Part shown: piece by piece, positions 13,501-40,567 of the stretch
How the letters are laid out: every line of letters begins with the position of its first letter
Position numbering within the stretch: the stretch's first letter is position 1
From: Gammaproteobacteria bacterium
Lineage (GTDB): Bacteria; Pseudomonadota; Gammaproteobacteria; Nevskiales; Nevskiaceae
Direction: 5' to 3'
Assembly: GCA_026398815.1 (NCBI GenBank)
Contig: JAPLSA010000031.1
Location: 124,001-188,000 of the forward strand
Length of the DNA stretch: 64,000 bases
The notes under the pieces: model-generated
What the model was told of the DNA's origin: nothing
Seen by the model: only the letters and a program-made list of their open reading frames with translations
Databases searched by the model: none
Translations under genes and position numbers: made by a program

Positions 13501-13715
13501 GTCGTGGTCAACGGGTAGGTGACCTGGTCCTCGATCACCTGCGGCGCCTGCCCGGGCCAGCTGGTGCGGATGATCACCTGGGTGTCGGACAGGTCCGGCA
13601 GCGCGTCGAGCGGCGTGGTCAGCGCGGCGCGCGTGCCCCACAGCGCCAGCAGCCCGGCGACCAGCAGCACCAGCACGCGGTTGGCGAGTGCGGCGCGGAT
13701 GATGGTGGCGATCAT
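10596..13715 (-). CDS. cusA: CusA-type heavy-metal RND efflux permease (Cu+/Ag+)
   Basis: 1039 residues, inner-membrane proton-driven pump. Twelve-TM RND architecture with the HME signature [15 protein letters not shown] and [16 protein letters not shown]. The three methionines that relay Cu+/Ag+ in E. coli CusA are present in their conserved contexts: [16 protein letters not shown] and [12 protein letters not shown]. The TM4 acidic residue for proton transfer is in [13 protein letters not shown]. It overlaps the stop of cusB by 4 nt (ATGA), so translation is coupled. Copper/silver is favoured over zinc/cobalt because of the methionine set and the CopL neighbour. Confidence 0.95.
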
Positions 13716-15085
13716 GGCGTGTGGCCCTGGTGGCCGCTGTGGTCTTCATGACCGGCATGGCCTCCATCGCTGGCCGGTGCCGCCGGTTGCGCAGGCCCGG
13801 CATGGCCGGCATGCGGATCGTCGGCCGCCGCGGGTGTGGCCTCGATGTCGATCGGCGCCAGCCGCTCCAGCGCGCCGCGCAGGTTCGCTTCGGAATCGAT
13901 CAGGAACTGGCCGCTGGCGACCACCTGCTGGCCGGCCGCCAGGCCGTCGAGCACCTCGACCCAGTCGCCGGTCTCGACGCCGGTATGCACCAGCACCGGC
14001 CGGAAGCGGCTGTCGTCGTCGGCCACCAGCACCAGGCTGCGGGTGCCGGTGCGGATCACCGCCTCGCTCGGCACCGCCAGCGCCTCCGCGCGGGCCGGTG
14101 TCTCGAGCTGCACGCTGGCGTACATGCCGGGCCGCAGCTGTGCCGCGGGGTTCGGCAGCGCGATGCGCAGCTTCACGGTGCGGGTCGCGCCGCTCAGCTC
14201 CGGGTAGACGTATTCGACCCGGCCGCTGAAGTCCTGTCCGGGCAGCGCCGCCACTGTCACCCGCGCCGCTGCGTCCGGCACGATCGCCGCGCCCTGGGCT
14301 TCCGGCAGCTCGGCGTTCAGCCAGACGCTGTCGAGGCCAGCCAGCACGAACAGGTTCATGCCCGGCTGCACCTGCGCGCCTTCGCGGACGCCGAGTTCCA
14401 GCACATAGCCGTCGCGGTCGGCAAACAGCTCGACGCGCCGCTCGGCCTGGCCACTGGCGGCGATGCGGCGCAGCTGTGCCTCGCCGACGCCGAGCAGCGC
14501 CAGCCGGGCGCGGGCGGCGTCCTTCAGGCCGGCATCGCCGCTGCGCAGCGCCAGCAGGAATTCGCCCTGCGCAGCCAGCAGCTCCGGCGACTGGATCGCC
14601 GCCAGCCGCTGGCCGCGCCGCACCGGATCGCCGACCGCCTTGACACCGAGCTGCTCGACCCAGCCGGCGGCGCGCGCCTGCACCGCCGCGATGCCGTGTT
14701 CGTCGACGGCGATCACGCCGGCCGCCAGCAGCTGCGGCTGCAGCGCCCGGCGCTCGACCGTGGCCCGACGGACACCGAGGTTCTGCACCACGCGCGGGTC
14801 GATGCGGAAGCCGCCGTCGTCCTGTGCGTGGCTGGCCTCGTCGACGTACTTCGGCACCAGTTCCATGTCCATGAACGGCGACTTGCCGGGCTTCTCGAAG
14901 TGCTGGTCCGGCACCATCGGGTCGTACCAGTAGAGCGGCTGGCGGGCTGGCGCGGCCGCCGCCGCAGCGGGCGCGGCCGGTGCTGGCGCGGCGTGCTGCG
15001 ACAGCAGCACGGCGCTGGTCGCGGCAACGGCAACGGCAACGGCGATGGCGATGGCGGCGAGGCCGATCACGGTGGAACGGTTCAT
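13712..15085 (-). CDS. cusB: CusB-type periplasmic adaptor with metal-binding N-domain and His-rich tail
   Basis: 457 residues. An N-terminal membrane anchor or signal is followed by a heavy-metal-binding domain ([12 protein letters not shown] ... [13 protein letters not shown]), the methionine-rich motif that passes Cu+/Ag+ to CusA. Barrel-sandwich, hairpin and beta-barrel domains follow. The last 30 residues contain about eight His in [15 protein letters not shown] repeats, an extra metal-binding tail not needed in E. coli CusB. Start and stop overlap cusC and cusA by 4 nt each. Confidence 0.94.
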
Positions 15086-16392
15086 GGCGTCACTCCTGCG
15101 GATTCGGTGTCGGTGTCGGGCTCGCGGGCCGCGAGATAGCGCAGCTGCAGCGCGTGGCGGCTGCGGTCGGTTTGCAGCTCGAGCCGGCGCAGCCGGGTGT
15201 CGAGCGCGGCGCGGCGTGCCGCCAGCACCTCGGACAGGCTGCCGCTGCCGGCGGCCCAGGCCAGCCGGGCGGCTTCGATGCGGGCCTCGGCCTCGGGAAG
15301 GATGGTGTCGTCGAAGCGGGCCAGACGGTCGCCGAGGCGGGTCCAGTCGCCGTGGTTCAGACGGGCGTCGGCGGCGTGTTCGCGGAAGCTGTCCTCACGC
15401 AGGGCCTCGGCGCGCAGCAGCTCGGACTGCTTCGCGGCCAGCCCGCGATCCTGACGGTTGGCGGTGAACACCGGCAGGTCGACCGAGACCTGCAGGTTCA
15501 GGTAATCGCTGAACGCCGGCCGGTGGCCGTAGCCCAGTTCGACGCTGAAATCGGACTGGTAGGCCTGCCGCGCCAGCCGCACGTCGGCCTCGGCGACGTC
15601 GATCTCGGCGCTGCTGATGTCGAGATGCGGATGGTTGCGCAGGCCGTCGAGCAGCACCGCCAACGACGGCGGCTCGGGCAGCGGCGGCGGACCGTCCGGC
15701 AGCGGCCGGTAGGCGGCCTCGCCGAGCCAGCGCGACAGCTGGCTGCGCGCATGGCCGTCGTCCTGTTCCAGCTTGGCGATCTCGTCGCGCAGCAGTTCCA
15801 GCGCTACCCGCGCTTCGCGCACCTCGGCTTGCGGCTTGCGGCCGCTGGCGTAGGCGAGCTGGAGCGCGTCCAGCTGCAGCTGCGCTTCGTGCTCGCTGGC
15901 GCGGGCCAGCGAGTGCGCTTCCCGGGCCTTCCAGACCTCCAGCCAGACCAGGCTGACCTCGCGTTCCAGCTGCAGGCGGTCGGTCAGCAGGCGGCGCTCG
16001 GCAAGCCGGGTTTCGGCGTCGGCGCGTTCGCCGCGCAGACGGCGCTTGTCGGCGCGCGGAAAGGCCTGCTGGATGCCGACGGTGAACTGGGTGTCGCTCT
16101 GCCGGGTCAGCGTGCCGATCTGGTCACCGGTCGCGGTGAGATCGCTGACCCCGCCGCGCAGCACCGGATCGGGCAGCTGGCGCGCCGCGACGGCGGCCTC
16201 GCGGGCGGCATCGACCTGATGCGCCTCGGCTTCGAGCATCGGCTGGCGATCGAGCGCGATGCGCCGCGCCGCCGGCAGCGACAGCGGTCCGGTTTCCGGC
16301 ACGGGGTCGGTCCAGGCCGGACCGGGCAGCAGCAACGGCAACAGCGACAGCAGCGCGCAGGCCGCGCGCGACGACGGGGGAATTCGGGACAT
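15082..16392 (-). CDS. cusC: CusC/CzcC-like TolC-family outer-membrane factor
   Basis: 436 residues from ATG 16392 (GGAG 7 nt upstream; an in-frame ATG at 16407 lacks this). A signal peptide (about residues 1-28) precedes two OEP repeats rich in Ala/Arg/Leu helices, forming the outer-membrane channel of the CusCBA pump. Unlike E. coli CusC no lipobox cysteine is seen. First gene of the tightly overlapping cusCBA set, after copL. Confidence 0.9.
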   Translation of the reverse strand: MSRIPPSSRAACALLSLLPLLLPGPAWTDPVPETGPLSLPAARRIALDRQPMLEAEAHQVDAAREAAVAARQLPDPVLRGGVSDLTATGDQIGTLTRQSDTQFTVGIQQAFPRADKRRLRGERADAETRLAERRLLTDRLQLEREVSLVWLEVWKAREAHSLARASEHEAQLQLDALQLAYASGRKPQAEVREARVALELLRDEIAKLEQDDGHARSQLSRWLGEAAYRPLPDGPPPLPEPPSLAVLLDGLRNHPHLDISSAEIDVAEADVRLARQAYQSDFSVELGYGHRPAFSDYLNLQVSVDLPVFTANRQDRGLAAKQSELLRAEALREDSFREHAADARLNHGDWTRLGDRLARFDDTILPEAEARIEAARLAWAAGSGSLSEVLAARRAALDTRLRRLELQTDRSRHALQLRYLAAREPDTDTESAGVTP

Positions 16393-16421
16393 GGAACCGC
16401 TCCGCAACGACCAGCCACGGG

Positions 16422-26039: not shown

Positions 26040-26125
26040 TACGACGGCTGCACCACGGTCCTTGCCGGACCGGCGTGCGGCCTGCCGGCCCGGTCACGGG
26101 CCCGTTGCCGACACGGATTCCCTCG

Positions 26126-26275
26126 ATGTCCCTCCCTGTGCTGCGCGCCTGCGCATTGCTGCTGCTGGCGGCGTTCGCCGTCGCGGCCGCGCCCGGCGTG
26201 GATGACGGCGAACGCCGTCACGACGACGACGCCCACCACCTGCTGCTGATCCGGATCGCCGACGCGCCGCCCTGA
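26126..26275 (+). CDS. Small exported His/Asp-rich peptide (49 aa), possible
   Basis: 49 residues: a plausible signal peptide (LRACALLLLAAFAVAAAPG) followed by a short charged stretch with RRHDDDAHHLLL. It fits between a DUF2946 gene and the next TonB receptor on the same strand. No strong ribosome site is seen, so it may be chance; the signal-like start and acidic/His tail make a small metal-binding peptide possible. Confidence 0.4.
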   Translation: MSLPVLRACALLLLAAFAVAAAPGVDDGERRHDDDAHHLLLIRIADAPP

Positions 26276-26332
26276 GCGCCCCTCGCGCGATACCGCTGCA
26301 CGCCCGCTTTCCCTGAATTCCCGGAGTTCCGC

Positions 26333-28498
26333 ATGACCCGATTCACCGCCTGCACCCCCGCCCGCCAGGCCGCCGCGCTGTCGCTGCTGCTGGCGCTCGG
26401 CAGTGCCGCCGCCGACGTCCGCGCTGCCGACGACGGCACCGAGACGCCCGCCGCCGCGAAAGCCACCGATGAAGCCGTGAAGCTCGACGGTGTCGAAGTC
26501 ACCGGCGTCAAAAGCCTGAAGCCGCCGGCGGTCAATGTCGGCAACAAGAGCGGCCTGCCGCTGGAACGCGTGCCGCAGAGCGTGCAGGTGCTGTCGGCGG
26601 ACGATCTCGACGAGCGCGGCGTGCGCTCGATCGGCGACGCGCTGCGCGCCGTGCCCTCGGCCAACGTCGGCAATCCCCGTGTCGCCCGTTACCAGAGCTT
26701 CAGCCTGAAGGTTCGCGGCTTCCTCGCCGACCAGCAGCGCAACGGCCTGCGCCAGCGCTACTTCGAGGATGTCGATGCCTCGGCGATTTCGAACATCGAG
26801 CGCATCGAAGTGCTCAAGGGACCGGGCGGCGTGCTGTACGGCCAGTCGGCGGTCGGCGGCCTGCTGAACATCGTCACCAAGGCGCCGCAGGCGCAGTTCG
26901 GCGCATCGGGCAATGCCAGCTTCGGCAGCTTCGACCAGAAGACGCTGGCCGCCGATGTCACCGGGCCGATCAGCCGCGAACAGCGGCTGTATGCCCGGGT
27001 CACCGGCGAAATCGAGCGCAGCAACACCTATTCCGATTTCCAGAAGCTGAACCGCGAGAACGTCGCGCTGGGCCTGTCCTGGCAGCCGGTCGATGCGGTG
27101 ATAGCCCACCTGAACGCCGAATGGCACCAGCGCAATACCGCCAACAATCCGGGCCTGCCGGTCACCGGCACGCTGGTGAGCAACGGCGTCGCCGAACTGC
27201 GCCGTGGCCTGTTCCTCGGCGAGCCGAACTTCACCACGCTGAACGCCTATGCGCCGCTGGTGCAGGCCTGGGTCGACATCCAGCTTTCCGACCACTGGAC
27301 GCTGACGCCGCGCGCCCAGTACTCCGGCTTCAACACCGATCTGCAGCAGATCCGCGTGCTGGCGCCGCAGGCCGGCCATCCGACGGTGATCAATCGCAAC
27401 GGCCGCAACGGCCAGGAGAACGACGGCTATTCGGTGTTCCAGCTCGATCTGGCCGGCCGCTTCGACACCTTCGGCTTCGAGCACCGGCTGCTGACCGGCG
27501 TCGAGCAGAACCTGGAACGCAGCCTGTTCACCCAGTTCAACCTGAGCAACGTCGGCAGCATCGACGTGCTGAACCCGGTCTACACCTATGACAGCGTCGC
27601 CCCGGCCGGAACCTTCGCGTTCCACTCGGTGCAGAACATCGACACGCTGGCGTTCTACCTGCAGGACACGCTGGCGCTGACCCGCCAGTGGGATGTCACC
27701 GGCGCCGTGCGCCAGACCCGGATTCTGGCCGACAACATCTTCAACGGCGCCGCCGATTCCACCGCCCAGGCGGCGACCACGTTCCAGGTCGGCAGCACCT
27801 TCCGCTTCGACGATCGCTGGTCGCTCTACGCCGGCTACAACACCGGCTTCGATCTGGAAGCCAACGCCGGCTCGCGGACGCCGAGCGGCGGCGTTGCCGA
27901 GCCGGAGGAATCCGACCAGGTGGAAGCCGGCATCCGCTATGCGACCGATTCGCTGCGTGCCAGCGCGGCAGTCTTCCGCACCCGGCGCAAGAACTTCGTG
28001 GTGCCGGACGCCGTGGACCCGAACCTGTTCACCCAGGCCGGTCTGGTCCGCGTCGATGGCGTCGAACTCGAAGGCGCCTGGCAGGCGACGCGGCTGATCC
28101 AGTTCAGCGGCGGCTACGCCTACCTCGGCGCCAAGGTCGTGCGCGGCGACGCCGACGACAGCGGCCGCCGCCTTGGCGACACGCCGCTGCACAGCGGCAA
28201 TCTGAGTGTCGAAGCCCGCGCGCCGTCGGCCTGGCTGGAACCGAAGTTCGGCACCGTCAGCCTGCGCGTCACTGGCGCCTATGTCGGCAGCCGTAACCTG
28301 ACCAACACCAGCGCCGTGGAGCTGCCGGACTACGGCACGCTCGATGTCGGCCTGCACTGGGCATTGCGCGAGCTGAGCGTCGACCTGCACGGCCAGAACC
28401 TCAGCGACAACCGCTACTTCACCGCCACCGGCAGCTCGAACTTCGTCTACGCGGGTGAGCCGCGCACGGTGTTCGTGCGGTTCGGCTGGCGTTACTGA
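26333..28498 (+). CDS. TonB-dependent siderophore-type receptor
   Basis: 721 residues, GGAG 8 nt upstream of ATG. Signal peptide (to about residue 32). Plug motifs: LPLERVPQSVQVLSADDL, VRGFLADQQRNGLRQRY, IEVLKGPGGVLYGQSAVGG, LLNIVTKAPQ; barrel ends with VFVRFGWRY (terminal aromatic). This is the standard siderophore-receptor layout. Ligand unknown. The PepSY gene follows 11 nt after the stop, repeating the receptor-PepSY pairing seen upstream. Confidence 0.94.
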   Translation: MTRFTACTPARQAAALSLLLALGSAAADVRAADDGTETPAAAKATDEAVKLDGVEVTGVKSLKPPAVNVGNKSGLPLERVPQSVQVLSADDLDERGVRSIGDALRAVPSANVGNPRVARYQSFSLKVRGFLADQQRNGLRQRYFEDVDASAISNIERIEVLKGPGGVLYGQSAVGGLLNIVTKAPQAQFGASGNASFGSFDQKTLAADVTGPISREQRLYARVTGEIERSNTYSDFQKLNRENVALGLSWQPVDAVIAHLNAEWHQRNTANNPGLPVTGTLVSNGVAELRRGLFLGEPNFTTLNAYAPLVQAWVDIQLSDHWTLTPRAQYSGFNTDLQQIRVLAPQAGHPTVINRNGRNGQENDGYSVFQLDLAGRFDTFGFEHRLLTGVEQNLERSLFTQFNLSNVGSIDVLNPVYTYDSVAPAGTFAFHSVQNIDTLAFYLQDTLALTRQWDVTGAVRQTRILADNIFNGAADSTAQAATTFQVGSTFRFDDRWSLYAGYNTGFDLEANAGSRTPSGGVAEPEESDQVEAGIRYATDSLRASAAVFRTRRKNFVVPDAVDPNLFTQAGLVRVDGVELEGAWQATRLIQFSGGYAYLGAKVVRGDADDSGRRLGDTPLHSGNLSVEARAPSAWLEPKFGTVSLRVTGAYVGSRNLTNTSAVELPDYGTLDVGLHWALRELSVDLHGQNLSDNRYFTATGSSNFVYAGEPRTVFVRFGWRY

Positions 28499-28509
28499 AG
28501 GCGCTGGCC

Positions 28510-29928
28510 ATGGCGACGCCGAATCCGGCTTCCGATGACCGCCGCCCGCGCAGCCGCGGCCTGTATGGCGCGGTCTGGCGCTGGCATTTCTATGCCGGCC
28601 TGTTCGTGGTGCCGGTGCTGCTGATGCTGGCGGTGACCGGCGCGCTGTACACCTTCGATGACGAGATCGAAGCCTGGTGGTACCGCGACCTGCAGGTGAC
28701 GCCGGCCTGCGCCGCACCGCTGCCGGCGGCGAGCCAGGAAGCGGCGGTGCAGGCCGCCTATCCGGGCGCGGCGATCCGCCGCTACACGGTGGCCGCAGCG
28801 GCCGACCGCGCCGCCCAGTGGACGATCCAGCCGCCGGGCGGCGCGGCGCTGAACCTGTTCGTCGAACCCTGTACCGGCGTCGTGCGCGGCGCGCTCGAGG
28901 CGCGCTGGCAGCTGATGAAGGTGATCTCGGCGCTGCACGGCGAACTGCTGCTCGGCACGGTCGGCGACTGGCTGGTTGAACTGGCAGCCAGCTGGGCGCT
29001 GGTGCTGCTGGTCACCGGGCTCTACCTGTGGTGGCCGGAGCGCGGCGACCGCCTGCTCGGCACCCTGATCCCGAGGCTCAATGCCAAGGGCCGGGTGTTC
29101 TGGCGCGACCTGCATGCGGTGCCAGCGGTCTGGAACGCGCTTGCGCTCGGCTTCTTGATCCTCAGCGGCCTGCCTTGGGCCGGCTTCTGGGGTGGCCAGC
29201 TGGCCCGCCTCGGCACGGTGTCGCACCTAACCGCGCCGACGCCGAACTTCGTCGCCGCGCCGACGCTGGACGCTGCCGCGCCGGCCGATCCGCACGCGGC
29301 ACATCGCGTTGCCGCTGCCGGCAATGACACGAGCATTCCGTGGGCGATCCGCCACGACGTCGCGCCGCAGGGCGGGCCGGCGCGGATCGGCGTCGCCGAG
29401 GTCGAAGCGGTCGCCCGCCAGCGCGGCGTGCTCGGCCCCGGCCTGCGGCTGATCTACCCGGACGGCCCCGGCGCCGTCTGGCACCTGAGCTACATCCCCG
29501 GCGGCGCCACCACGCAGCGCACGCTGTACCTCGACCCGGCCGATGCCCGCGTGATCGACGACATCGGCTACGGCCGCTACAGCCCGCTCGGCAAGGCCGT
29601 CGAATGGGGCGTGGAAATCCACCTCGGCCGCCAGTTCGGCCTCGCCAACCAGCTGCTCTGCGTGCTGGTCTGCGGACTCACGGTGCTGACCGTCATCACC
29701 GGCACGGTGATGTGGTGGCGCCGCCGCCCGCCCGGCGGCCTGCGCGCCGGCCTTGGCGCGCCAAGCCGGCCGAAGGCCTACCGCACCCAGACCGGCGTGG
29801 TCGTGATCGCCGTCGTGCTCGGCCTGCTGTTCCCGCTGATGGGTGCAAGCCTGGTCGCGGTGCTGATCCTCGACGTGCTGATCCGGCGGCTGCTGCCGAC
29901 TGCGACGCAGCGCAGGTCTGCGATATGA
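28510..29928 (+). CDS. PepSY-domain membrane protein, second copy
   Basis: 472 residues. TM1 with GAVWRWHFYAGLFVVPVLL (the W-R-W-H-F-Y-A-G signature of PepSY-TM/PiuB proteins), then VTGALYTFDDEIEAWWY, a periplasmic PepSY region with two cysteines, a mid TM pair with conserved HGELLLG, ALVLLVTGLYLWW, and two C-terminal TM segments. Probably an inner-membrane reductase or translocation helper for the chelate brought in by the receptor at 26333. Only loosely similar to the PepSY protein at 23596, so the two receptors have separate partners. Confidence 0.88.
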   Translation: MATPNPASDDRRPRSRGLYGAVWRWHFYAGLFVVPVLLMLAVTGALYTFDDEIEAWWYRDLQVTPACAAPLPAASQEAAVQAAYPGAAIRRYTVAAAADRAAQWTIQPPGGAALNLFVEPCTGVVRGALEARWQLMKVISALHGELLLGTVGDWLVELAASWALVLLVTGLYLWWPERGDRLLGTLIPRLNAKGRVFWRDLHAVPAVWNALALGFLILSGLPWAGFWGGQLARLGTVSHLTAPTPNFVAAPTLDAAAPADPHAAHRVAAAGNDTSIPWAIRHDVAPQGGPARIGVAEVEAVARQRGVLGPGLRLIYPDGPGAVWHLSYIPGGATTQRTLYLDPADARVIDDIGYGRYSPLGKAVEWGVEIHLGRQFGLANQLLCVLVCGLTVLTVITGTVMWWRRRPPGGLRAGLGAPSRPKAYRTQTGVVVIAVVLGLLFPLMGASLVAVLILDVLIRRLLPTATQRRSAI

Positions 29929-30110
29929 GCGCGCCGGCCCTCGTCACTGCGGTTCCGCATCGGGTCGGACCCTGGCCGGCATGGTCTTCGGAGTCTCTTC
30001 CGAGGCGCGCGATCGCCTCGCGATTCCGAGGGCATCTCTGCTTTCCCATCGCCGGCGCAGCAGGCTTGCTGCCGACGTCGGCCCTACGTCACCGGAGTCT
30101 CCTTCGATGA
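29925..30110 (+). CDS. 61-aa linking ORF with ATGA overlaps at both ends, doubtful
   Basis: The ATG overlaps the PepSY stop (ATGA) and its own stop overlaps the ATG of the next TonB receptor (again ATGA), so a ribosome could pass through all three without release. The 61-residue product (Arg/Pro/Ala/Ser mix) has no recognisable motif. The receptor has its own GGAG, so the ORF could be chance in GC-rich DNA. Confidence 0.3.
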   Translation: MSAPALVTAVPHRVGPWPAWSSESLPRRAIASRFRGHLCFPIAGAAGLLPTSALRHRSLLR

Positions 30111-32278
30111 ACCTCAAACTTGCCGCTGCAGGGCACCTGCGCCGACTGCTGATCGCCGCCGCGTTGCAATCGACGCTGGCCGTCAACCTGGCGCAGGCGG
30201 CCGATGCGGCCAACCCGGCTGCCTTGCCCCCGACGGACACCCCGAACGAAAAGGCCGTGCAGCTGGCCCCGGTGATCGCCACCGGCACTCCCGCCGCGCC
30301 GGCCGCGCAGACCGCCACCAAGATCGCCGCGCCGCTGGCCGAGATTCCGCAGTCGATCACGGTGATCGGCCGCGACGCGCTCGACGAGCAGAACGCGCAG
30401 AGCCTGAACCAGGCGCTGCGCTTCGTGCCCGGCGTGCAGAGCGAGCAGTACGGCCTCGACAACGTCTACGATTTCTTCGCGATCCGCGGCTTCCGCGCCG
30501 ACGACACCGGCGTGTTCCGCGATGGCCTGCTGCTGTTCTCGCCGGCCAGCGGCTTCGCGGCGTTCCGGCTCGAGCCGTACGGCGTGGAGCGCATCGAGGT
30601 GCTGCGCGGCCCGGCCTCGGTGCTGTACGGCAGCGCCAACCCGGGGGGCCTGGTCAACTACGTCAGCAAGCAGCCGCCGGCCACGGCGCAGCGCGAGCTG
30701 CAGCTGGAGGTCGGCAGCTTCGACTGGAAGCAGGTCAAGGCCGATGTCGGCGGGCCGCTCGGCGCGGTCGACGGCCTGCAGTACCGGCTGACCGGCCTGT
30801 ACCGCGACAGCGGCACCCAGGTCGATTTCGAGCAGAACGACCGCGCCTTCATCGCCCCTTCCTTGAGCTGGCAGATCGGCCCGGACACCCGGCTGACCGT
30901 GCTCGGCCAGTACCAGAACGACGATGCCGGCCACCTGCAGTTCCTGCCGGCAGCGGGCACCGTGCAGCCGAATCCCAACGGCCGCATCTCGACGCACCGC
31001 AATGACGGCGAACCGGGCTACAACGGCTTCGACCGCGAGCAGTGGTCGGCCGGCTGGATCGCCGAGCATCGCTTCGACGCGGTCTGGAGCGTTCGCCAGC
31101 AGTTCCGCTACGACCATCTCGACACCGCGTTCCGCGATGTCTTCGGCCTGGGCCTCGATCCGGCCGACGACAGCCAGCGGACCCTGCTGCGGGCCAGCTT
31201 CAGCTCCGCCGACCGCGCCCGGGCCGCCGTCGTCGACAGCAACCTGACCGGCCGCTTCGGCAGCGGCCGGCTGCGCCATGCGGTGCTGGCCGGCGTCGAC
31301 TACCAGCACATCGACTACGCCGGCAACCAGGGCTTTGGCGAGGCGCCGTCGCTGGATCTCTATGCGCCGAGCTACGGTGCTTCGATCGAGGTGCCGGCGC
31401 TGTTCGTCGACACCCGGACCCGGCGCAGCCAGGTTGGCCTGTACGTGCAGGAGCAGGCGACCGTCGACGAGCGCTGGCGGCTGCTGCTCGGCGGCCGTCA
31501 GGACTGGGTGTCGAACCGGGTGCGCGATCGCCTCGCCGACAGCCGCAGCGAGCAGGACGACAGCCAGCGCAGCGGCCGGGTCGGCGTGTCCTACCGCTTC
31601 GACCTCGGTCTGGTGCCGTACCTGAACTACGCGACCTCGTTCCTGCCGGTGATCGGCAGCGATTCCGCTGGCCGCGGCTTCCAGCCGGAAACCGGCCGGC
31701 AGTGGGAAACCGGGGCCAAGCTGGAGCTGCCGAGCTTGCGCAGCCTGCTGACCCTGGCCGGCTTCCACATCGAGCGCCAGAACGTGCTGACGCCGAGTCC
31801 GGACCCGGAAGATCCGTTCGGCCGCGTGCAGACCGGCGCGGTGCGTTCGCAGGGTGTCGAATTCGGTGCGGAGTCGCGACCGCTGCCGGGCCTGCACCTG
31901 ACCGCCGCCTACACCTGGCAGGACGTCGAGGTGACGCGCAGCAACGCCGGCAACCGCGGCCTGCGGCCGGTCGCCACACCCGAGCATCTGGCCTCGCTGC
32001 ACGCGCGCTACGCGCTGCTCGAAGGCCCGCTGGCCGGGCTTGGCCTGAGCGCCGCCGTGCGTTACCAGGGCGCCACCGCCGGCGATGATCTGAACACGCT
32101 GAAGGTGGCCGCCTACACGCTGTTCGACGCCGGCATCGACTACGGCTGGCGCGGTCTGCGCTTCGGGGTCTACGCGCAGAACCTCGGCAACAACACGCAC
32201 GTGGCGGCCTGCCAGGCCGGCTCCTGCTTCTACGGCGTCGACCGCACGGTGACCGGCACGGTCGCCTATCGCTGGTAA
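30107..32278 (+). CDS. TonB-dependent siderophore receptor, FhuA-like
   Basis: 723 residues from ATG 30107 (GGAG upstream; signal peptide ending LAQAAD). Plug: AEIPQSITVIGRDALDEQ, LRFVPGVQSEQYG, FAIRGFRADDTGVFRDGL, IEVLRGPASVLYG, NPGGLVNYVSKQPP. Near the C-terminus a Cys pair CQAGSC followed by FYGVDRTVTGTVAYRW closely matches the end of ferrichrome/hydroxamate-type receptors. Cargo is therefore plausibly a ferric hydroxamate, although a copper chelate cannot be excluded. It is followed 34 nt later by the Tat-exported InhA-like protein. Confidence 0.94.
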   Translation: MNLKLAAAGHLRRLLIAAALQSTLAVNLAQAADAANPAALPPTDTPNEKAVQLAPVIATGTPAAPAAQTATKIAAPLAEIPQSITVIGRDALDEQNAQSLNQALRFVPGVQSEQYGLDNVYDFFAIRGFRADDTGVFRDGLLLFSPASGFAAFRLEPYGVERIEVLRGPASVLYGSANPGGLVNYVSKQPPATAQRELQLEVGSFDWKQVKADVGGPLGAVDGLQYRLTGLYRDSGTQVDFEQNDRAFIAPSLSWQIGPDTRLTVLGQYQNDDAGHLQFLPAAGTVQPNPNGRISTHRNDGEPGYNGFDREQWSAGWIAEHRFDAVWSVRQQFRYDHLDTAFRDVFGLGLDPADDSQRTLLRASFSSADRARAAVVDSNLTGRFGSGRLRHAVLAGVDYQHIDYAGNQGFGEAPSLDLYAPSYGASIEVPALFVDTRTRRSQVGLYVQEQATVDERWRLLLGGRQDWVSNRVRDRLADSRSEQDDSQRSGRVGVSYRFDLGLVPYLNYATSFLPVIGSDSAGRGFQPETGRQWETGAKLELPSLRSLLTLAGFHIERQNVLTPSPDPEDPFGRVQTGAVRSQGVEFGAESRPLPGLHLTAAYTWQDVEVTRSNAGNRGLRPVATPEHLASLHARYALLEGPLAGLGLSAAVRYQGATAGDDLNTLKVAAYTLFDAGIDYGWRGLRFGVYAQNLGNNTHVAACQAGSCFYGVDRTVTGTVAYRW

Positions 32279-32312
32279 GGCTTGAAACCCACCCCGACAG
32301 CGGAGAATCCCC

Positions 32313-33170
32313 ATGTCCATCGATCGCAGGAAGCTGCTCGGGATCAGTGCCGCCGGGCTTGCCGGCGTGGCTTTGACGGATGCGCTGGCGCGTGCCGCCG
32401 AGGCGATCGGCAAGAACAAGCCGTCGCTCGAGGACGCGCAGCGGCAGGGCACGCAAGCGCACGAAGCGCTGATGGCGGTTCCCGGCATGCACATGCACGG
32501 CAGCGAGCAGGTGGCCTTGCTGCTCTATCCGGGTTTCACGGCGCTGGACCTGATCGGCCCGCATTTCTTTCTCGCCAGCATGATGGGTGCGACCGTGCAC
32601 CTGGTCGCTGCGCAGCGAGAACCGGTGCTGTCCGATGTCGGTGTCGCGATGCTGCCGACCGCGCGCTTCGACGAGGTACCCGAGAAGCTCGACGTGCTGC
32701 TGGTGCCCGGCGGTGCCGAGGGCACCGTCGCGGCGGCACGCGATGCCGCCACGCTCGCCTTCGTCAAAAGCCGGGGCGCGAATGCGCGCTACGTGGCCAG
32801 CGTCTGCACCGGCGCGGTGATCCTCGGCGCCGCCGGGCTGCTCGCTGGGCGGCGGGCGACGAGCCATTGGGGCGTGCGCGAGGCGCTCGCCGACTTCGGC
32901 GCCAAGCCGGTCGACCAGCGGGTGGTGCTGGACGGCAAGCTGGTGACCGGCGCCGGGGTGTCGGCCGGGCTTGATCTCGGCCTGGCGCTGATCGGCCTGC
33001 TGCGCGGCAAGCCTTTCGCCGAAGCGGTGCAGCTGATGGCCGAATACGCGCCGGCACCGGCCTACCACGCCGGCACGCCCGGCAGCGCGCCGCGGGCGAT
33101 CGAGCAGTCGGTGCGCGGCATGTTCGCGCCGCTGCTGGTCGAGACCCGCGCGCTGGCCGCCGGGACATGA
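32313..33170 (+). CDS. Tat-exported DJ-1/PfpI protein, isonitrile hydratase (InhA)-like
   Basis: 285 residues. The N-terminus DRRKLLGISAAGLAGVALTD is a twin-arginine signal (R5-R6), so the folded protein is exported. After a linker containing GMHMHG (possible metal ligands) comes a complete DJ-1/PfpI domain. It matches isocyanide hydratase InhA: LDLIGPHFFLAS (Asp79), YVASVCTGAVILGAAGLL (nucleophile Cys165 and Thr166), ATSHWGVREAL, VTGAGVSAGLD and MAEYAPAPAY. InhA enzymes hydrate isonitriles to N-formamides. Known InhA is cytosolic; export is unusual. Position right after a TonB receptor in a copper-rich island suggests action on an imported metallophore (inference). Confidence 0.87.
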   Translation: MSIDRRKLLGISAAGLAGVALTDALARAAEAIGKNKPSLEDAQRQGTQAHEALMAVPGMHMHGSEQVALLLYPGFTALDLIGPHFFLASMMGATVHLVAAQREPVLSDVGVAMLPTARFDEVPEKLDVLLVPGGAEGTVAAARDAATLAFVKSRGANARYVASVCTGAVILGAAGLLAGRRATSHWGVREALADFGAKPVDQRVVLDGKLVTGAGVSAGLDLGLALIGLLRGKPFAEAVQLMAEYAPAPAYHAGTPGSAPRAIEQSVRGMFAPLLVETRALAAGT

Positions 33171-33377
33171 CCGTGCGCACTGCCCGGACCGACGCCGAGC
33201 GCGCGGTTCACGTACGCCCCTTGTCCGGCGCTAGGTCGGTCGACGAGCGGCTGGTCATCGACGGCCATTTGCACGGCGGTGCCGGCGTCCCGGCCGGAAC
33301 TGCTTGAAGCGCCGCTCGTGATGTACGACAACTTCGTTCAGGAAACGCGGAGCATTGCCGCGACTTCCGCGGTCTGA
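33167..33377 (+). pseudogene. Decayed second copy of the InhA-like gene
   Basis: From 33167 (ATG overlapping the stop of the intact gene) one frame reads to a stop at 33307. Its part SGARSVDERLVIDGHLHGG plus AGVPAG aligns with GAKPVDQRVVLDGKLVTG plus AGVSAG of the intact protein, about 15 identities in 23. After a frame change, the segment ending at 33377 reads NFVQETRSIAATSAV, similar to the intact C-terminus PLLVETRALAAGT. The intervening domain part (EYAPAP region) is missing. This looks like a tandem duplicate that lost its N-terminal part and central piece. Confidence 0.6.
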
Positions 33378-33409
33378 GCCGCACCCACCCCGAATCCCAG
33401 GAGTTGCCG

Positions 33410-34036
33410 ATGAACCGTTTCCGCCGTTCCCGCCTGATGCTGCTCAGCGCCGGCCTTGCCGCTGCCGTCGCCGTTCACGCCGCCGACCGTGCGCCGAAAG
33501 CGGCCACCGGCGGCTGGACGCTGGCCGCCGCCGATTCGCGGCTGGCCTTCGTGTCGATCAAGAACGACGCGGTCGGCGAGGTGCACCGCTTCCCGGCGCT
33601 GGCCGGCAAGGTCGATGCCGGCGGCAAGCTGGCGCTGGAGATCACGCTGGACGCCGTGGAAACCGGCATCCCGATCCGCAACGAGCGGCTGCGGACGATG
33701 CTGTTCGATACTGCTGCCCATCCGACCGCGAAGGTCAGCGCGCAGGTCGATGCGGCGGCGGTGCGGGCCTTGCCGGTCGGTGCCAGCCTGAATGTCAGCA
33801 CCCCGGTGACGCTGGACCTGCACGGCCTCAGCGGCGAACTGCCGGGCGAGTTCCGGATCACCCATGTCAGCGCCCGTCAGTGGCGGGTCAGCACCGAGGC
33901 GCCGCTGATCGTCAACGCGGCGAGCTTCGGCCTTGGCGAAGGCGTGGAAGCCTTGCGCAATGTCGCCAAGCTGCAGGCGATCTCGGCCGCGGTGCCGGTC
34001 ACCGCTTCGCTGCTGTTCGACGCCGCGCCGCGCTGA
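33410..34036 (+). CDS. YceI-family periplasmic lipid-binding protein
   Basis: 208 residues from ATG 33410 (AGGAG 6 nt upstream; a TTG six bases earlier lacks spacing). Signal peptide to about residue 26. The mature part is a YceI-type beta-barrel domain, with ADSRLAFVSIKNDAVGEVHRF at the start, IRNERLRTMLFDTAAHPTA (typical NxRxxxLF) in the middle, and ITHVSARQW later. YceI proteins bind isoprenoid or other lipophilic ligands; specific ligand unknown. Final plus-strand gene of the receptor/InhA run. Confidence 0.88.
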   Translation: MNRFRRSRLMLLSAGLAAAVAVHAADRAPKAATGGWTLAAADSRLAFVSIKNDAVGEVHRFPALAGKVDAGGKLALEITLDAVETGIPIRNERLRTMLFDTAAHPTAKVSAQVDAAAVRALPVGASLNVSTPVTLDLHGLSGELPGEFRITHVSARQWRVSTEAPLIVNAASFGLGEGVEALRNVAKLQAISAAVPVTASLLFDAAPR

Positions 34037-34119
34037 CACCGATGCGGCGGCCGGCCGGTCCGTTGACGCTGTCCGCCGCGCGCGCCGCAGGGCCGGCGGC
34101 GGCGCGGCGGCGGCCGGCT

Positions 34120-34605
34120 TCAGATGGCCTTGGCGGCGATGATGGTCTTGCCGCAGGCATCAAAGCAGGCCTTGCAGATCGCGTGGTGCTCGACGTGCGG
34201 CTTGCAGGCGGCGGCGCAGGCTTCCATCACCGCGATCGAGGCCTTGGCGAAGCTGGCGGTGAATTCCGAATCCAGCCGCGCCAGCCGGGCCACGGCCACG
34301 CAGCTGGTATCGCAGGCGAGCGCGGTCTTCAGGCATTCGCCGAGGCTCTTGTCGCCGGTGGCGAGCACCGACTGGCAATGGGCGATGCAGTCTTCGGCGG
34401 CAGCGGCGCAGTCGCTGAAGGTGGCGGCCAGCGCGGCATAGCGGCCGGACGCTGCCTGATGGGCGCTGTGATCCATGCCGGCATGGGCCGAATGATCGAC
34501 CGCCGCCTTGGCCTTGGCGACCATGCGGGGTTCGTCGGCGCTGGCCACCAGGCTGCCGAAGGTGGCCAGGCCGATTGCGCCACGGGCGAATTCACGTCGG
34601 TTCAT
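34120..34605 (-). CDS. Tat-exported four-helix copper-storage protein (Csp1-like)
   Basis: 161 residues. Tat signal NRREFARGAIGLATFGSL (R3-R4). The mature four-helix bundle carries 11 cysteines spaced as in Csp proteins: FSDC, EDC-xxx-C (EDCIAHC), GEC, ACDTSC, EACAAAC, AICKACFDACG. Csp1 of methanotrophs holds many Cu(I) ions through such Cys inside the bundle and is exported by Tat. A Met/His stretch HSAHAGMDHSAH follows the signal. It stores or buffers copper in the periplasm. Convergent with the YceI gene. Confidence 0.9.
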   Translation of the reverse strand: MNRREFARGAIGLATFGSLVASADEPRMVAKAKAAVDHSAHAGMDHSAHQAASGRYAALAATFSDCAAAAEDCIAHCQSVLATGDKSLGECLKTALACDTSCVAVARLARLDSEFTASFAKASIAVMEACAAACKPHVEHHAICKACFDACGKTIIAAKAI

Positions 34606-34784
34606 CGAAGTACTCCATGGGTTGAGGCCGCAGCGCCGGCAGTGGCGGGCGGCAATTCATCGGCCGGGCATCACAGCCCGGACGCGCGGCATTGTCCGGG
34701 CTCGCGTCGCCAGCAGCCAATACCGATCAGCGCCGGCAACGCCGGCCCGTCATGCCGTTTCGACGGCGGGCGGGGATCGTGGCG

Positions 34785-35261
34785 ATGAGTCGCCGCCGGC
34801 CCGTCGCGCGCTGGCAGCGCGCCCTGCTGGCACTGGCGCTGCTGATGCAGCTGTGCGCGCCGCTGCTGCATGCCCAGGCGCCGTTCCCGTCGCCCGGCCG
34901 CGCGGCGGCGGCGTTCTGCGGCGGCAATGCCGCGCCCGCGTCGATTCGGCAGCTGCAGGCGGCGCTGCCGCCGGAGCTGCGTGCCGCATTCGCCCGCCAG
35001 TCGGGCGATGCCTCGGCGGCAGCGCGCCATGCGGCGGCTGCCTGCGGCCACTGCGTCTGCGCCAGTCCGGCGCTGCTGCCGATGCCGGTGGCCGGCGGCC
35101 TGCCGGCGCAGCGGCAGCACGCTGATGCCCCGGCTCCGGCGCAGTCACCGCTGGTGCTGTCGCCGGCCACCCGCCTGCCGCCCGCCACCGGGCCGCCGGC
35201 CGTGATCGCGGCGCTGCTGCGCGACGCGGGCGGGCCCGTGCGCGTCGATTCCCACTTGTAA
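34785..35261 (+). CDS. Exported protein, DUF2946-like
   Basis: 158 residues from ATG 34785; an in-frame ATG at 34752 is an alternative. Signal-like N-terminus (RALLALALLMQLCAPLLHAQA). Late Cys motif ACGHCVCASPALL recalls the C-x-x-C of DUF2946, but the LVPxGFMP motif is absent, so the family assignment is weak. It is divergent from Csp1 and precedes two small genes. Role unknown; context suggests copper. Confidence 0.5.
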   Translation: MSRRRPVARWQRALLALALLMQLCAPLLHAQAPFPSPGRAAAAFCGGNAAPASIRQLQAALPPELRAAFARQSGDASAAARHAAAACGHCVCASPALLPMPVAGGLPAQRQHADAPAPAQSPLVLSPATRLPPATGPPAVIAALLRDAGGPVRVDSHL

Positions 35262-35295
35262 GCGGCCGGCGCGCTGTCGTCGGCCGACGAGGCCG

Positions 35296-35436
35296 ATGAC
35301 CATGAAAACCTTTCTGCTGCCGGCTGCCTTGCGCGGTATTGGCGATCACCTGCTGTGGATCGCCGGCTGGATCAATCTGCTGCTCGCTGCGCTGCTGATC
35401 GCCGCCCTTTCGACGGTGCCCGGAGTGCTGCCATGA
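35296..35436 (+). CDS. 46-aa single-span membrane protein
   Basis: 46 residues with one strong transmembrane segment (LLWIAGWINLLLAALLIAAL) after a short basic start. Its stop overlaps the next ATG by 4 nt (ATGA), so the two are translationally coupled. It is too short for routine gene calling. Hydrophobicity and coupling support a real gene; the function is unknown. Confidence 0.55.
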   Translation: MTMKTFLLPAALRGIGDHLLWIAGWINLLLAALLIAALSTVPGVLP

Positions 35437-35810
35437 GCCGCACGCTGTACGAGTTCCAGTTGCCGGCGCTGGTCGACGCCGCCGCGCTGCGCCGCCTGCG
35501 TGGCGAACTGGACATGCGCACCGCGCTGTCGATCCGCTACCACGACCTGAACCTGCGGATCGTCCGTGTCATCGGCCGGACCGGTCGCGAGGACGAGCTG
35601 CGTGCGCTGTTCGCCTCGCTCGGCTTCCCGCCGGCCAGTGACGACCCGACGCTCGAGTGCCAGCACCGGCCACTGCGCAATCGCCGCCGGCGGGAGCCTT
35701 TCGCGCGCGGTCCCGGCCGAAGTGCGGCGGCAGTGGCCGGTGTTCAGGCGGCGCGGGTTGCGGCGATGGCCTTGCCGCAGGCGTCGAAGCAGGCGCGGCA
35801 GGCCGGATGA
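35433..35810 (+). CDS. Small hypothetical protein, C-terminus antisense to copper-storage gene
   Basis: 125 residues, start coupled to the 46-aa gene. Residues 1-75 look like a compact alpha/beta fold (YEFQLPALVDAAALRRLRG, then LRIVRVIGR, then ALFASLGFPPA), somewhat like a ferredoxin-like metal-binding domain but without CxxC. From about residue 80 it is Arg-rich, and the last 20 or so codons are the antisense of the convergent Csp gene's C-terminus (67-nt overlap). The true C-terminus may be altered by an indel. Confidence 0.5.
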   Translation: MSRTLYEFQLPALVDAAALRRLRGELDMRTALSIRYHDLNLRIVRVIGRTGREDELRALFASLGFPPASDDPTLECQHRPLRNRRRREPFARGPGRSAAAVAGVQAARVAAMALPQASKQARQAG

Positions 35811-36175
35811 GCGGCGCGATGCGGCCGGCAGGCTTCGACGCAGGCGTCGAGGATCGACAGCGATTGCTTGGCCAGCACCGCAGCCCAGGCCGAGCGATTG
35901 CGCGCCAGCCGGCCGATCGCCACGGCGACCGCGTCGGCGTCCAGCGCGGTGCGCAGGCAGTCGGCCAGCGCGGCGTCGCCGGTCGCCAGCTGCTGCTGGC
36001 AGTGGCGGATGCAGGTTTCCGCCGCCGCCGCGCAGCCGTCGTAGGCCCGCGCCAGCGCCGCCTGCCGCTGTTCGGCCGGCGCGGCGTCGGCGGCGGCCGG
36101 ATCGACGAACGGCGCGTCGACCGGCGGAGCCGTGCCGGGAGTGTCGGAAGGGGAGGCAGCAGCAGTGGCGGTCAT
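35744..36175 (-). CDS. Cytosolic four-helix copper-storage protein (Csp3-like)
   Basis: 143 residues, no signal peptide, so cytosolic like Csp3. Nine cysteines: DGC, ETC, RHC (ETCIRHC), ADC, DACVEAC, PACRACFDACG. Compared with the exported paralogue at 34120, the ALACDTSC pair is ALDADAVA here, so two inner Cys ligands are lost. The N-terminal 45 residues are Pro/Ala/Asp-rich and disordered. It overlaps the convergent gene at 35433 by 67 nt. It probably buffers cytosolic Cu(I). Confidence 0.85.
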   Translation of the reverse strand: MTATAAASPSDTPGTAPPVDAPFVDPAAADAAPAEQRQAALARAYDGCAAAAETCIRHCQQQLATGDAALADCLRTALDADAVAVAIGRLARNRSAWAAVLAKQSLSILDACVEACRPHRAAHPACRACFDACGKAIAATRAA

Positions 36176-36268
36176 CGGCAGGTCCGTTCGGGCAGCACGG
36201 CGATCATGCCTGCCGGCGGCAGCGGCGATAATCCGCCGCTGCCCGTTCCCCTGTTCCCGGAGCCTGCG

Positions 36269-37345
36269 TTGTCCACCGATACCCGCATCCCGATGGTGCT
36301 GCTGACCGGCTTTCTCGGCGCCGGCAAGACCACCCTGCTGAACTTCCTGCTGCGCCATCCGTCGATGACCGGCACCGCCGTGGTGATCAATGAGTACGGC
36401 GAGGTCGGCCTCGACCATCATCTGGTCGAGCAGGCCGAGCCGGACGACATCGAACTGATCGAAGGCGGCTGCATGTGCTGCACCACGCGCGGCCGGCTCG
36501 CGGAATCGCTGATGAGCCTGTTCACCAAGGCGCAGCGCAAGCAGATTCCCAGCCTCAAGCGGATCATCATCGAGACCACCGGCCTGGCCGAACCCGGCCC
36601 GATCCTGAACCAGCTGTTCAATGCGCCGCAGCTGCACGAACGCTTCGTGCTCGATTCGGTGGTGACCCTGGTCGACGCCGTCAACGGCGCGCAGACCGCC
36701 GAGCAGATCGACATCGCCCAGAAGCAGATCGCCGGTGCCGACGCGCTGCTGATCACCAAGACCGACCTGGTCGATGCCGAAGCGCTGGACGCGCTCAAGG
36801 CCCAGCTGCTGGTGATCAATCCGGACGCCGAGCTGTACGTGCCGAAGAAGGGCGCGGCGCAGCCGGACTGGCTGTTCACCGGCGGCCGTCGCCGGCCGGG
36901 CACGCCGAGCTTCGGCCTGAGTCCGCTGATCCTGAAGGCCGACAGCCTGCGACTGGCGCCGGCCGATCCGAACCTGATGAGCGCCGATGCCGATCCCTGG
37001 GGCGCCGGCCCGGCCTGGGACGAGGTGCAGACCTTCAGCCTGATCGTCGACGCGCCGCTGCCGGCCTGGAAGTTCTACGGCTGGCTGGATTTCCTGCGCT
37101 CGCTGGCCGGCAACGACCTGCTGCGTTTCAAGGGCATCGTCAACATCGAAGGCCAGGACCGGCCGCGCGTCATCCACGGCGTGCAGACGGTGCTGCACCC
37201 GCCGGAGGAACTCGAGCGCTGGCCGGACGAGGACCGCCGCACGCGGATCGTCTTCATCACCCGGGGCTGGGGCCAGGAAACCGTGCGCAACACGCTGGCC
37301 TACCTGAAGGACACGCCGGACGAAGCCCCGCTGCTCGAACCGTGA
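36269..37345 (+). CDS. COG0523 GTPase (CobW/YjiA family) metallochaperone
   Basis: 358 residues from TTG 36269, which has GGAG 6 nt upstream; an ATG at 36206 would add 21 non-conserved residues and overlap no site. Walker A GFLGAGKTT, metal motif GGCMCC (CxCC), switch region ETTGLAEPGP, and TKTDLVD for guanine recognition, followed by the CobW C-terminal domain with KFYGWLDFLRSLAG. These proteins load Zn, Co or other metals onto client proteins using GTP. Position between copper-storage and copper-chaperone genes hints at metal homeostasis. Confidence 0.93.
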   Translation: MSTDTRIPMVLLTGFLGAGKTTLLNFLLRHPSMTGTAVVINEYGEVGLDHHLVEQAEPDDIELIEGGCMCCTTRGRLAESLMSLFTKAQRKQIPSLKRIIIETTGLAEPGPILNQLFNAPQLHERFVLDSVVTLVDAVNGAQTAEQIDIAQKQIAGADALLITKTDLVDAEALDALKAQLLVINPDAELYVPKKGAAQPDWLFTGGRRRPGTPSFGLSPLILKADSLRLAPADPNLMSADADPWGAGPAWDEVQTFSLIVDAPLPAWKFYGWLDFLRSLAGNDLLRFKGIVNIEGQDRPRVIHGVQTVLHPPEELERWPDEDRRTRIVFITRGWGQETVRNTLAYLKDTPDEAPLLEP

Positions 37346-37421
37346 ACGCGCCCGGCGGCCTGCTGCGGCCGCCCGCCCGCGCCCTTTCCCGTATCCCTTT
37401 CACTTCTGACGAGGACAGCCC

Positions 37422-37931
37422 ATGAAGCTGCGTCTTTCCCTGCTGGCGGCCACGGCCGCCATCGCCCTGCTGACCGCCTGCAAGCCGTCGGCGACCTCCC
37501 CTGCTGCCGCACCCGCGCCGGCTGCTGCGCCACCGGCAGCAGCGGCCGCCGAAACCCGGATCGGCGCGCTGCTGATCGTCGATGCCAGCTCGCGTGAAAC
37601 GCCGCTGGCTGGCGGCACCGCGCCCGGCTTCCTGACCATTCGCAACAGCGGCAGCGATGAAGATCGGCTGCTGGCCGCCAGCAGCCCGGCGGTGGCGACC
37701 GTGGAGATCCACGAGATGTCGATGGCCGATGGCCAGATGACGATGCGGGCGCTGCCCGAGGGGCTGGCGATCCCGGCCGGCGGCGAAGTGCAGCTGGCGC
37801 CGGGCGGCCTGCACCTGATGCTGATCGGCGTGCGCGAACCGTTGGCCGCCGGCCAGACCCTGCCGGTGGAACTGCGCTTCGAGAAGGCCGGCGCGGTGAC
37901 CGTGTCGCTGGCCGTGCAGGCGCGCCGCTAG
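37422..37931 (+). CDS. PCu(A)C copper chaperone, lipoprotein
   Basis: 169 residues. Lipobox ALLTAC gives a lipid-anchored Cys (about residue 20), followed by an Ala/Pro linker. The copper site is present: VEIHEMSMADGQMTMR and GGLHLMLIGVREP (His...Met...His-x-Met). It is a second PCu(A)C, membrane-tethered where the one at 24981 is soluble. It may deliver Cu(I) to an envelope enzyme, perhaps cytochrome oxidase. Confidence 0.93.
   Translation: MKLRLSLLAATAAIALLTACKPSATSPAAAPAPAAAPPAAAAAETRIGALLIVDASSRETPLAGGTAPGFLTIRNSGSDEDRLLAASSPAVATVEIHEMSMADGQMTMRALPEGLAIPAGGEVQLAPGGLHLMLIGVREPLAAGQTLPVELRFEKAGAVTVSLAVQARR

Positions 37932-39731: not shown

Positions 39732-40567
<836 letters not shown>

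What the first reader, a model, noticed from the sequence alone, without database searches (positions are those of the whole stretch)
32313..33170. Tat-exported isonitrile hydratase-like enzyme: a possible chalkophore opener
The domain closely resembles isocyanide hydratase InhA, including the nucleophile Cys/Thr and the Asp after the first strand, but has a twin-arginine signal and a Met/His linker. Isonitrile lipopeptides and related isonitrile natural products bind copper. An exported isonitrile hydratase next to TonB receptors and copper storage proteins could destroy the isonitrile ligand and free the copper, or detoxify isonitrile copper-scavenging antibiotics.
Basis: partly seen in the sequence, partly recalled or inferred. 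Interest (0 to 1): 0.72.

Follow-up and report, generated by a model that had tools for sequence, protein, structure and literature searches.

The report
Exported isonitrile-hydratase-like partner of metal receptors
The gene encodes a protein that looks exported to the periplasm and closely resembles isonitrile hydratase; many of its relatives sit directly behind an outer-membrane metal-chelate receptor and some lie beside copper genes, so it may process the imported chelate to free its metal, but its substrate is untested.

Summary
ORF 32313-33170 is a 285-aa DJ-1/PfpI protein with a twin-arginine leader, a Met/His linker and InhA-type active-site residues (Asp79, Cys165, Thr166). It is not an InhA orthologue: the tree puts InhA in a clade of leaderless homologues and this protein in a leader-bearing set. 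A TonB receptor lies directly upstream in 30 of 52 leader-bearing loci and 0 of 31 leaderless ones (22 of 43 without seeds and near-copies). PCuAC, MbnP or MbnH lie in the fetched flanks of 11 of 52, against 0 of 31 leaderless and 0 of 20 FoxA-type receptor loci. The paired receptors' promoters lack those controls' Fur-box excess. Compared with a same-genus genome, receptor and enzyme were replaced together inside a conserved copper island, leaving the tail of the old enzyme gene. Best reading: the periplasmic half of a receptor-enzyme cassette that processes an imported metal chelate, most likely of copper. Isonitrile as substrate is possible but untested: none of 44 searched genomes with the leader-bearing form has a PvcA-type synthase, and position InhA-150 is usually altered.

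The parts
32313..33170 (+). Tat-leader DJ-1/PfpI protein, related to isonitrile hydratase InhA; Asp79, Cys165, Thr166; Met/His linker about residues 48-63
30104..32278 (+). TonB-dependent receptor of the FoxA/FhuA/FetA type, 34 bp upstream of the DJ-1 gene; the start is my choice, the ORF listed begins at 29981
   Evidence: below the FoxA and FhuA equivalog cut-offs
33226..33374 (+). tail of a lost second copy of the enzyme gene, closer to the gene of the same-genus Lake Pavin MAG than to the intact gene
28510..29928 (+). PepSY_TM membrane protein
   Evidence: 228.6 bits; 86% identical in the Lake Pavin MAG
26333..28498 (+). second TonB-dependent receptor, upstream of PepSY_TM
33410..34036 (+). 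YceI-domain protein
34120..34605 (-). Csp1-like Tat cysteine-rich protein, just below the family cut-off
   Evidence: TIGR04401 98.0 bits against 100
35744..36310 (-). second Csp1-like protein (start uncertain), below the cut-off
   Evidence: TIGR04401 72.8 bits against 100
36287..37345 (+). CobW-type GTPase (start is my choice)
37422..37931 (+). copper chaperone PCu(A)C
   Evidence: 123.7 bits, cut-off 29.4
10596..16407 (-). RND efflux set: AcrB-type pump, CusB-type adaptor with heavy-metal-binding domain, and a third ORF (15082-16407) that was not scanned
   Evidence: for the first two; for the third

Best explanation
It is a periplasmic Cys-Asp hydrolase of a branch next to isonitrile hydratase. 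It is exported by Tat and works with the TonB receptor encoded just upstream. The receptor imports a metal chelate, most likely of copper; the enzyme attacks an electrophilic carbon of the ligand through Cys165, with Asp79 as acid/base, which lowers the ligand's hold on the metal; the Met/His linker and neighbouring copper proteins (PCuAC, Csp1-like, MbnP/MbnH elsewhere) take the metal on. Shown by computation: fold, residues, leader motif, linkage to receptors, enrichment near copper genes, joint replacement of receptor and enzyme. Inferred: export, catalysis, that the ligand is the substrate, and that the metal is copper.
For: Asp and Cys kept in 52 of 52 leader-bearing proteins, Thr or Ser next to Cys in all 52. 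Receptor directly upstream in 30 of 52 against 0 of 31 leaderless; 22 of 43 against 0 of 31 without the 9 seeds and near-copies, Fisher 3e-7. PCuAC over the Pfam cut-off in 8 loci, MbnP and MbnH over the NCBIfam cut-offs in 5 each, together 11 of 52 loci (8 of 43 non-seed, against 0 of 31 leaderless, p 0.018, and 0 of 20 FoxA-type receptor loci, p 0.047). Orders include receptor-PepSY-PCuAC-enzyme (L077) and a PepSY-enzyme-MbnP-MbnH stretch with SCO1 behind a distant receptor-like protein (L100). Fur-box match in 31 paired-receptor promoters equals shuffles (excess 0.03), against 1.42 in 20 FoxA-type controls; one-sided Mann-Whitney p 0.007, and 0.022 with 15 beta/gamma loci only. Against the Lake Pavin MAG flanking proteins are 82-93% identical, but the receptor 31% and the enzyme 56%, with a leftover tail of the old enzyme gene. 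Receptor and enzyme identities correlate over 28 of 32 pairs (4 dropped), r 0.53, 0 of 5000 permutations as high.
Against: 22 of 52 leader-bearing loci have no receptor directly upstream (L059, L063, L077, L087, L088 and L100 have one or a distant one nearby), among them a Methylobacterium group and a Nocardia. 41 of 52 have no confirmed PCuAC, MbnP or MbnH in the fetched flanks. The window's own receptor is of the FoxA/FetA siderophore type, a type known for iron. The receptor control loci come from one order and are 20 of 49 matches, some with short flanks. The correlation of receptor and enzyme could come from shared ancestry alone. No biochemical data on a member were found; the only expression data seen, for a Caulobacter cluster, concern a protein whose membership I could not check and come from a zinc regulator mutant.
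Confidence: 0.5

Rival explanations
1. One reading: a true isonitrile hydratase that hydrates the isonitrile ligands of imported chalkophores in the periplasm and so frees copper.
For: Catalytic Asp, Cys and Thr of InhA kept; 45% identity and rmsd 1.0 to InhA; copper and receptor context.
Against: Outside the InhA clade; InhA-150 mostly Ala or Glu and several other sites differ from the leaderless homologues; 0 of 44 searched genomes with a PvcA-type synthase, which does not exclude foreign isonitriles or another isonitrile pathway.
Confidence: 0.22
2. An iron version of the same idea: a periplasmic enzyme that cleaves a ferric siderophore brought in by a FoxA/FhuA/FetA-type receptor.
For: The window's receptor is nearest to enantio-pyochelin and ferrioxamine receptors; PepSY_TM next door is the family of the ferrioxamine reductase FoxB (PMC12914433, passages) and also stands near 7 of 20 FoxA-type control loci.
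Against: No Fur-box excess at the paired receptors; no DJ-1 protein in any of 20 FoxA-type control loci; copper genes near some pairs.
Confidence: 0.12
3. A non-catalytic periplasmic Cu(I) carrier that binds copper by the Cys and the Met/His linker and takes it from the receptor.
For: Close Met-His pair in 32 of 52 linkers against a mean of 3.8 by chance.
Against: The catalytic Asp and the Thr/Ser beside Cys are as constant as in the leaderless InhA relatives; 20 of 52 linkers lack a close Met-His pair.
Confidence: 0.1
4. Detoxification of isonitrile or related copper-scavenging antibiotics arriving through the receptor.
For: XanA, an isocyanide hydratase homologue of a fungal isocyanide cluster, is suggested to serve detoxification (PMC5974471, passages).
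Against: A receptor placed with the enzyme would import the poison; receptor and enzyme were replaced together in the window's lineage, which fits uptake better.
Confidence: 0.06

Closest known systems
Isonitrile (isocyanide) hydratase InhA, Pseudomonas
   Same: DJ-1 fold, Asp17/Cys101/Thr102, 45% identity, rmsd 1.0
   Different: Proteins of the InhA clade in the set have no recognised leader and no receptor directly upstream; the window protein lies elsewhere in the tree and has Ala at position 150
3ewn, ThiJ/PfpI family protein of Pseudomonas syringae
   Same: Nearest solved structure, 50% identity, rmsd 0.8; falls among leader-bearing proteins in the tree
   Different: Ser in place of Thr beside the Cys; the entry title gives no function; its own leader and neighbours were not examined
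CrtA copper TonB transporters with the PepSY_TM protein CrpH (Bordetella)
   Same: Copper-linked receptor operons with PepSY_TM and sometimes PCuAC (PMC12914433, abstract, section 4, discussion and passages; PMC13038864, passages)
   Different: The terms DJ-1, PfpI, isonitrile and hydratase do not occur in either main text; whether the receptors here are CrtA-type was not tested
MbnP/MbnH copper-linked pair
   Same: In the flanks of the leader-bearing DJ-1 gene in 5 loci, over the NCBIfam cut-offs
   Different: A separate module; the own genome's one MbnP match lies on another contig
Periplasmic siderophore hydrolases (recalled, no call)
   Same: Enzyme that opens the imported ligand of a TonB receptor
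   Different: Those known to me are serine esterases, not Cys-Asp DJ-1 proteins

Membership tests
Isonitrile hydratase InhA | DJ-1/PfpI fold | tested here: met
Isonitrile hydratase InhA | Asp17, Cys101, Thr102 | tested here: met
   Asp79, Cys165, Thr166
Isonitrile hydratase InhA | same clade as InhA | tested here: not met
   (quick tree, SH-aLRT): InhA in a 29-row clade with 27 leaderless and 1 unclear row (99); window in a 12-row leader-bearing set (96)
Isonitrile hydratase InhA | hydration of isonitriles to formamides | not testable with these tools
   needs an enzyme assay
Isonitrile hydratase InhA | Gly at position 150 | tested here: not met
   Ala in the window protein
Tat-exported protein | twin-arginine leader with hydrophobic stretch | tested here: met
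   window: RR. Of the 52 called leader-bearing, 50 show RR; L050 has Lys-Arg and L059 no clear motif
Tat-exported protein | export in the cell | not testable with these tools
   needs fractionation
DJ-1 glyoxalase III / PfpI deglycase | NCBIfam equivalog scores | tested here: not met
   TIGR01383 67.7 against 131.25; NF040823 58.6 against 330
FoxA ferrioxamine receptor (window receptor 30104-32278) | equivalog score | tested here: not met
   480.3 against 1300
CrtA copper receptor | same sequence cluster as CrtA | not tested
   no CrtA sequence was compared
Csp1 copper storage protein (34120-34605) | TIGR04401 score | tested here: not met
   98.0 against 100, just below

The most novel reading that the evidence does not exclude
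A periplasmic enzyme that chemically opens an imported chalkophore (isonitrile or another electrophilic ligand) to release copper, encoded as a swappable cassette with its own receptor: an enzymatic copper-release step behind a TonB receptor, found in alpha-, beta- and gammaproteobacteria including methanotrophs.
Probability: 0.28. Interest if true: 0.88.

Novelty: new variant of a known kind. Interest (0 to 1): 0.62.

Why it matters
To my knowledge how bacteria take copper off a chalkophore after import is an open question, and the copper-receptor passages seen here name no ligand-processing enzyme. A recurrent receptor-enzyme pair with an intact Cys-Asp active site, found in methanotrophs and sometimes near MbnP/MbnH and PCuAC, gives a concrete candidate that can be purified, with a crystal structure (3ewn) already deposited for its branch. 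It also suggests a role for a branch of the isonitrile hydratase relatives that the plasmid records seen here annotate only as DJ-1/PfpI family protein.

Tried and rejected
Glyoxalase/deglycase role: NCBIfam scores far below cut-offs. Copper-type two-component system as proof in the methanotroph plasmid loci: the three sensor kinases scanned score best against the heavy-metal sensor model but at about half its cut-off, and the three response regulators score best against PmrA or TctD, so this is not used as evidence. Own isonitrile synthesis: PF05141 gave 0 of 1 and 0 of 43 genomes from 44 handles given of the 52 leader-bearing loci (L063 was not held); the search does work, since it found the family in 1 of 26 genomes of leaderless homologues, 26 of 31 loci given. 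DUF2946 as a further neighbour: of six candidates scanned one passes the Pfam cut-off (L062 8821-9261), five give no match, so not counted. PepSY_TM as a copper marker: rejected, it also occurs in 7 of 20 FoxA-type control loci. Independent-pairs test of leader against receptor on the tree: too few pairs to decide. Two methanotroph copper papers: the words DJ-1 and PfpI do not occur (PMC9601215 and PMC4831470, passages). Promoter/terminator scan of 29800-34200: nothing found. Literature: of the ten searches no listing or passage that I saw describes the receptor-DJ-1 pair as a unit; PMC4176598 lists a TonB receptor and a ThiJ/PfpI protein in one co-regulated Caulobacter cluster. The library is open-access only and most listed papers were not opened.

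Rows and labels: the counted set is 87 loci (80, the window, L044, and plasmid loci L035-L039). Plasmid loci L040 and L041, and the other genome-search loci, were fetched but not counted; L042 and L043 are the same places as L048 and L073. 4 of 87 (L089, L093, L101, L126) were left out as truncated or unclear; 38 of the 52 leader-bearing calls are by rule and 14 by reading the N-terminus, of which L059 is doubtful. L054, L055 and L061 were added to the upstream count by hand because the rule had picked wrong starts. Leaderless L125 and L127 have a receptor 4.4-4.8 kb away on the other strand, and L066 a weak match 6.6 kb upstream. Automatic profile hits to MbnP in L068 and MbnH in the window were dropped from the copper count because they were not confirmed; with them it is 12 of 52. 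The profiles were built from members of the loci themselves. Promoters were cut by slightly different start rules for pairs and controls; 31 of 32 pairs had enough upstream sequence.

Full report
WHAT IS THERE. The ORF at 32313-33170 is real: 285 aa, strong codon bias, DJ-1/PfpI domain at 109 bits. Its N-terminus has a twin-arginine leader (MSIDRRKLLGISAAGLAGVALTDALARA), then a linker with Met and His, then the catalytic domain. The nearest solved structures are 3ewn (Pseudomonas syringae, no function in the title; 50% identity, rmsd 0.8) and isocyanide hydratase InhA (45%, rmsd 1.0), by sequence and by an AlphaFold2 model of mean pLDDT 94. InhA's Asp17, Cys101 and Thr102 align with Asp79, Cys165 and Thr166.

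FAMILY. 52 were judged leader-bearing (38 by rule, 14 by reading), 31 leaderless, 4 left out. In the tree (quick method) InhA lies in a clade of 29 rows with 27 leaderless and 1 unclear protein (support 99); the window lies in a set of 12 rows, all leader-bearing (support 96); 3ewn lies among leader-bearing proteins. The two kinds are not cleanly split: 4 leaderless rows (L058, L066, L067, L072) fall on the other side, and 5 leader-bearing ones (L044, L081, L092, L100, L112) on the InhA side of a weak fork; the leader label needs 6 changes against a shuffled mean of 27.1. So the protein is a neighbour of InhA, not an InhA orthologue. Asp17 and Cys101 are kept in 52 of 52 and 31 of 31; position 102 is Thr or Ser in all. 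Position 150, where Gly-to-Ala or Gly-to-Thr slows InhA about sixfold (PMC10971408, passages), is Ala 34, Gly 13, Glu 5 in the leader-bearing set and Gly 27, Ala 3, Ser 1 in the other. The Met/His linker is a family trait: a His and a Met within five residues in 32 of 52, against 3.8 expected.

RECEPTOR LINK. A TonB receptor ends within 300 bp upstream on the same strand in 30 of 52 leader-bearing loci and 0 of 31 leaderless loci. Without the 9 seeds and near-copies it is 22 of 43 against 0 of 31 (Fisher 3e-7). In others a receptor, or in L100 a distant receptor-like protein, is one or two genes away or on the other side (L059, L063, L077, L087, L088, L100). In four Methylocystis and Methylosinus plasmid loci the pair stands beside a divergent two-component system. 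Identities of receptor and enzyme correlate across 28 pairs (4 of 32 dropped; r 0.53; 0 of 5000 permutations as high), which shared ancestry alone could also give.

A CASSETTE THAT WAS SWAPPED. A same-genus genome (Lake Pavin MAG; G014, L042, L048) has the same island. Window DNA matches it at 81% over 25005-29874 and at 78% over 33287-37900; flanking proteins are 82-93% identical. Between these lies the receptor-enzyme pair, with 31% (receptor) and 56% (enzyme) identity. Just behind the intact gene, at 33226-33374, is the tail of another copy, 84% identical over 88 bases to the end of the Lake Pavin gene. The simplest account is that another receptor-enzyme pair replaced the old pair as a unit. 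That is what one expects if the two act on the same ligand. The newcomer receptor is FoxA/FhuA/FetA-like (484 bits to FetA, against 171 for the paired receptor of L062); its median identity to the other paired receptors is 27%, theirs among themselves 32%.

WHICH METAL. For copper: PCuAC in 8 loci (Pfam), MbnP and MbnH in 5 (NCBIfam), together 11 of 52 loci; 8 of 43 non-seed against 0 of 31 leaderless (p 0.018) and 0 of 20 FoxA-type receptor loci of the same order (p 0.047). The 20 control loci were taken from 49 matches outside the window. The window's island itself holds PCuAC, two Csp1-like proteins below their cut-off, and an efflux set with a CusB-type adaptor. Against iron: the best Fur-box match in 31 paired-receptor promoters is no better than in shuffles (excess 0.03), while 20 FoxA-type controls show an excess of 1.42 (one-sided p 0.007; 15 beta/gamma loci only, p 0.022). 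Limits: 41 of 52 loci show no confirmed copper gene, controls come from one order, and the window's receptor type is a siderophore type. In Caulobacter a cluster with a TonB receptor (CC1778) and a ThiJ/PfpI protein (CC1780) goes down together in a zur mutant; apart from this and the czr efflux cluster, the paper assigns the remaining down-regulated genes to the Fur regulon (PMC4176598, passages). I could not check that CC1780 belongs here.

MECHANISM. Shown here by computation: fold, active-site residues, leader motif, receptor link, copper-gene enrichment, joint replacement. Inferred: Tat export; attack of Cys165 on an electrophilic carbon of the imported ligand with Asp79 as acid/base, as in InhA; weakened binding; hand-over of copper to the linker and to periplasmic copper proteins. 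Isonitrile is one candidate ligand; the absence of PvcA-type synthases from 44 genomes (positive control, 1 of 26) means it would be foreign or made by another pathway.

KNOWN OR NEW. The CrtA/CrpH papers describe copper receptor operons with PepSY_TM and PCuAC; a term search of their main texts finds no DJ-1, PfpI, isonitrile or hydratase (PMC12914433, abstract, section 4, discussion and passages; PMC13038864, passages). PMC3621798 (passages) describes MbnP/MbnH near receptors, with no DJ-1 or ThiJ mention. In none of the ten literature searches did I see the pair described as a unit. I rate it a new variant of a known kind: a known enzyme fold and a known receptor kind in a combination whose function is open.

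Noticed in passing
33226-33374: Tail of a lost second enzyme gene, closest to the gene of the same-genus Lake Pavin MAG.
   Followed up: yes
10596-16407 (-): RND efflux set with a CusB-type adaptor carrying a heavy-metal-binding domain, in the same window.
   Followed up: partly
16454-16849 (-), 20588-21205, 25518-26039, 34692-35261 (+): Small proteins that by eye resemble DUF2946, near receptor or metal genes; none gives a Pfam match.
   Followed up: partly
39732-41675 (-): ApbE flavin transferase and FMN-binding-domain protein, a possible periplasmic flavin redox set.
   Followed up: no
37960-39690 (-): Di-haem peroxidase-like protein, below the CCP_MauG cut-off (22.8 against 25.6).
   Followed up: partly
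L060 7875-8681: Leader-bearing homologue in Nocardia, with no TonB receptor found in the fetched flanks.
   Followed up: partly
L085, L091, L095, L103, L108: A Methylobacterium/Methylorubrum group of leader-bearing homologues without a receptor directly upstream.
   Followed up: no
L115 genome (G143), L149 and L150: A Pseudomonas genome with a leaderless InhA-clade protein also holds two PvcA-type isonitrile synthase matches.
   Followed up: no
L128 (own genome, contig 23): The own genome has an MbnP-family protein on another contig.
   Followed up: no
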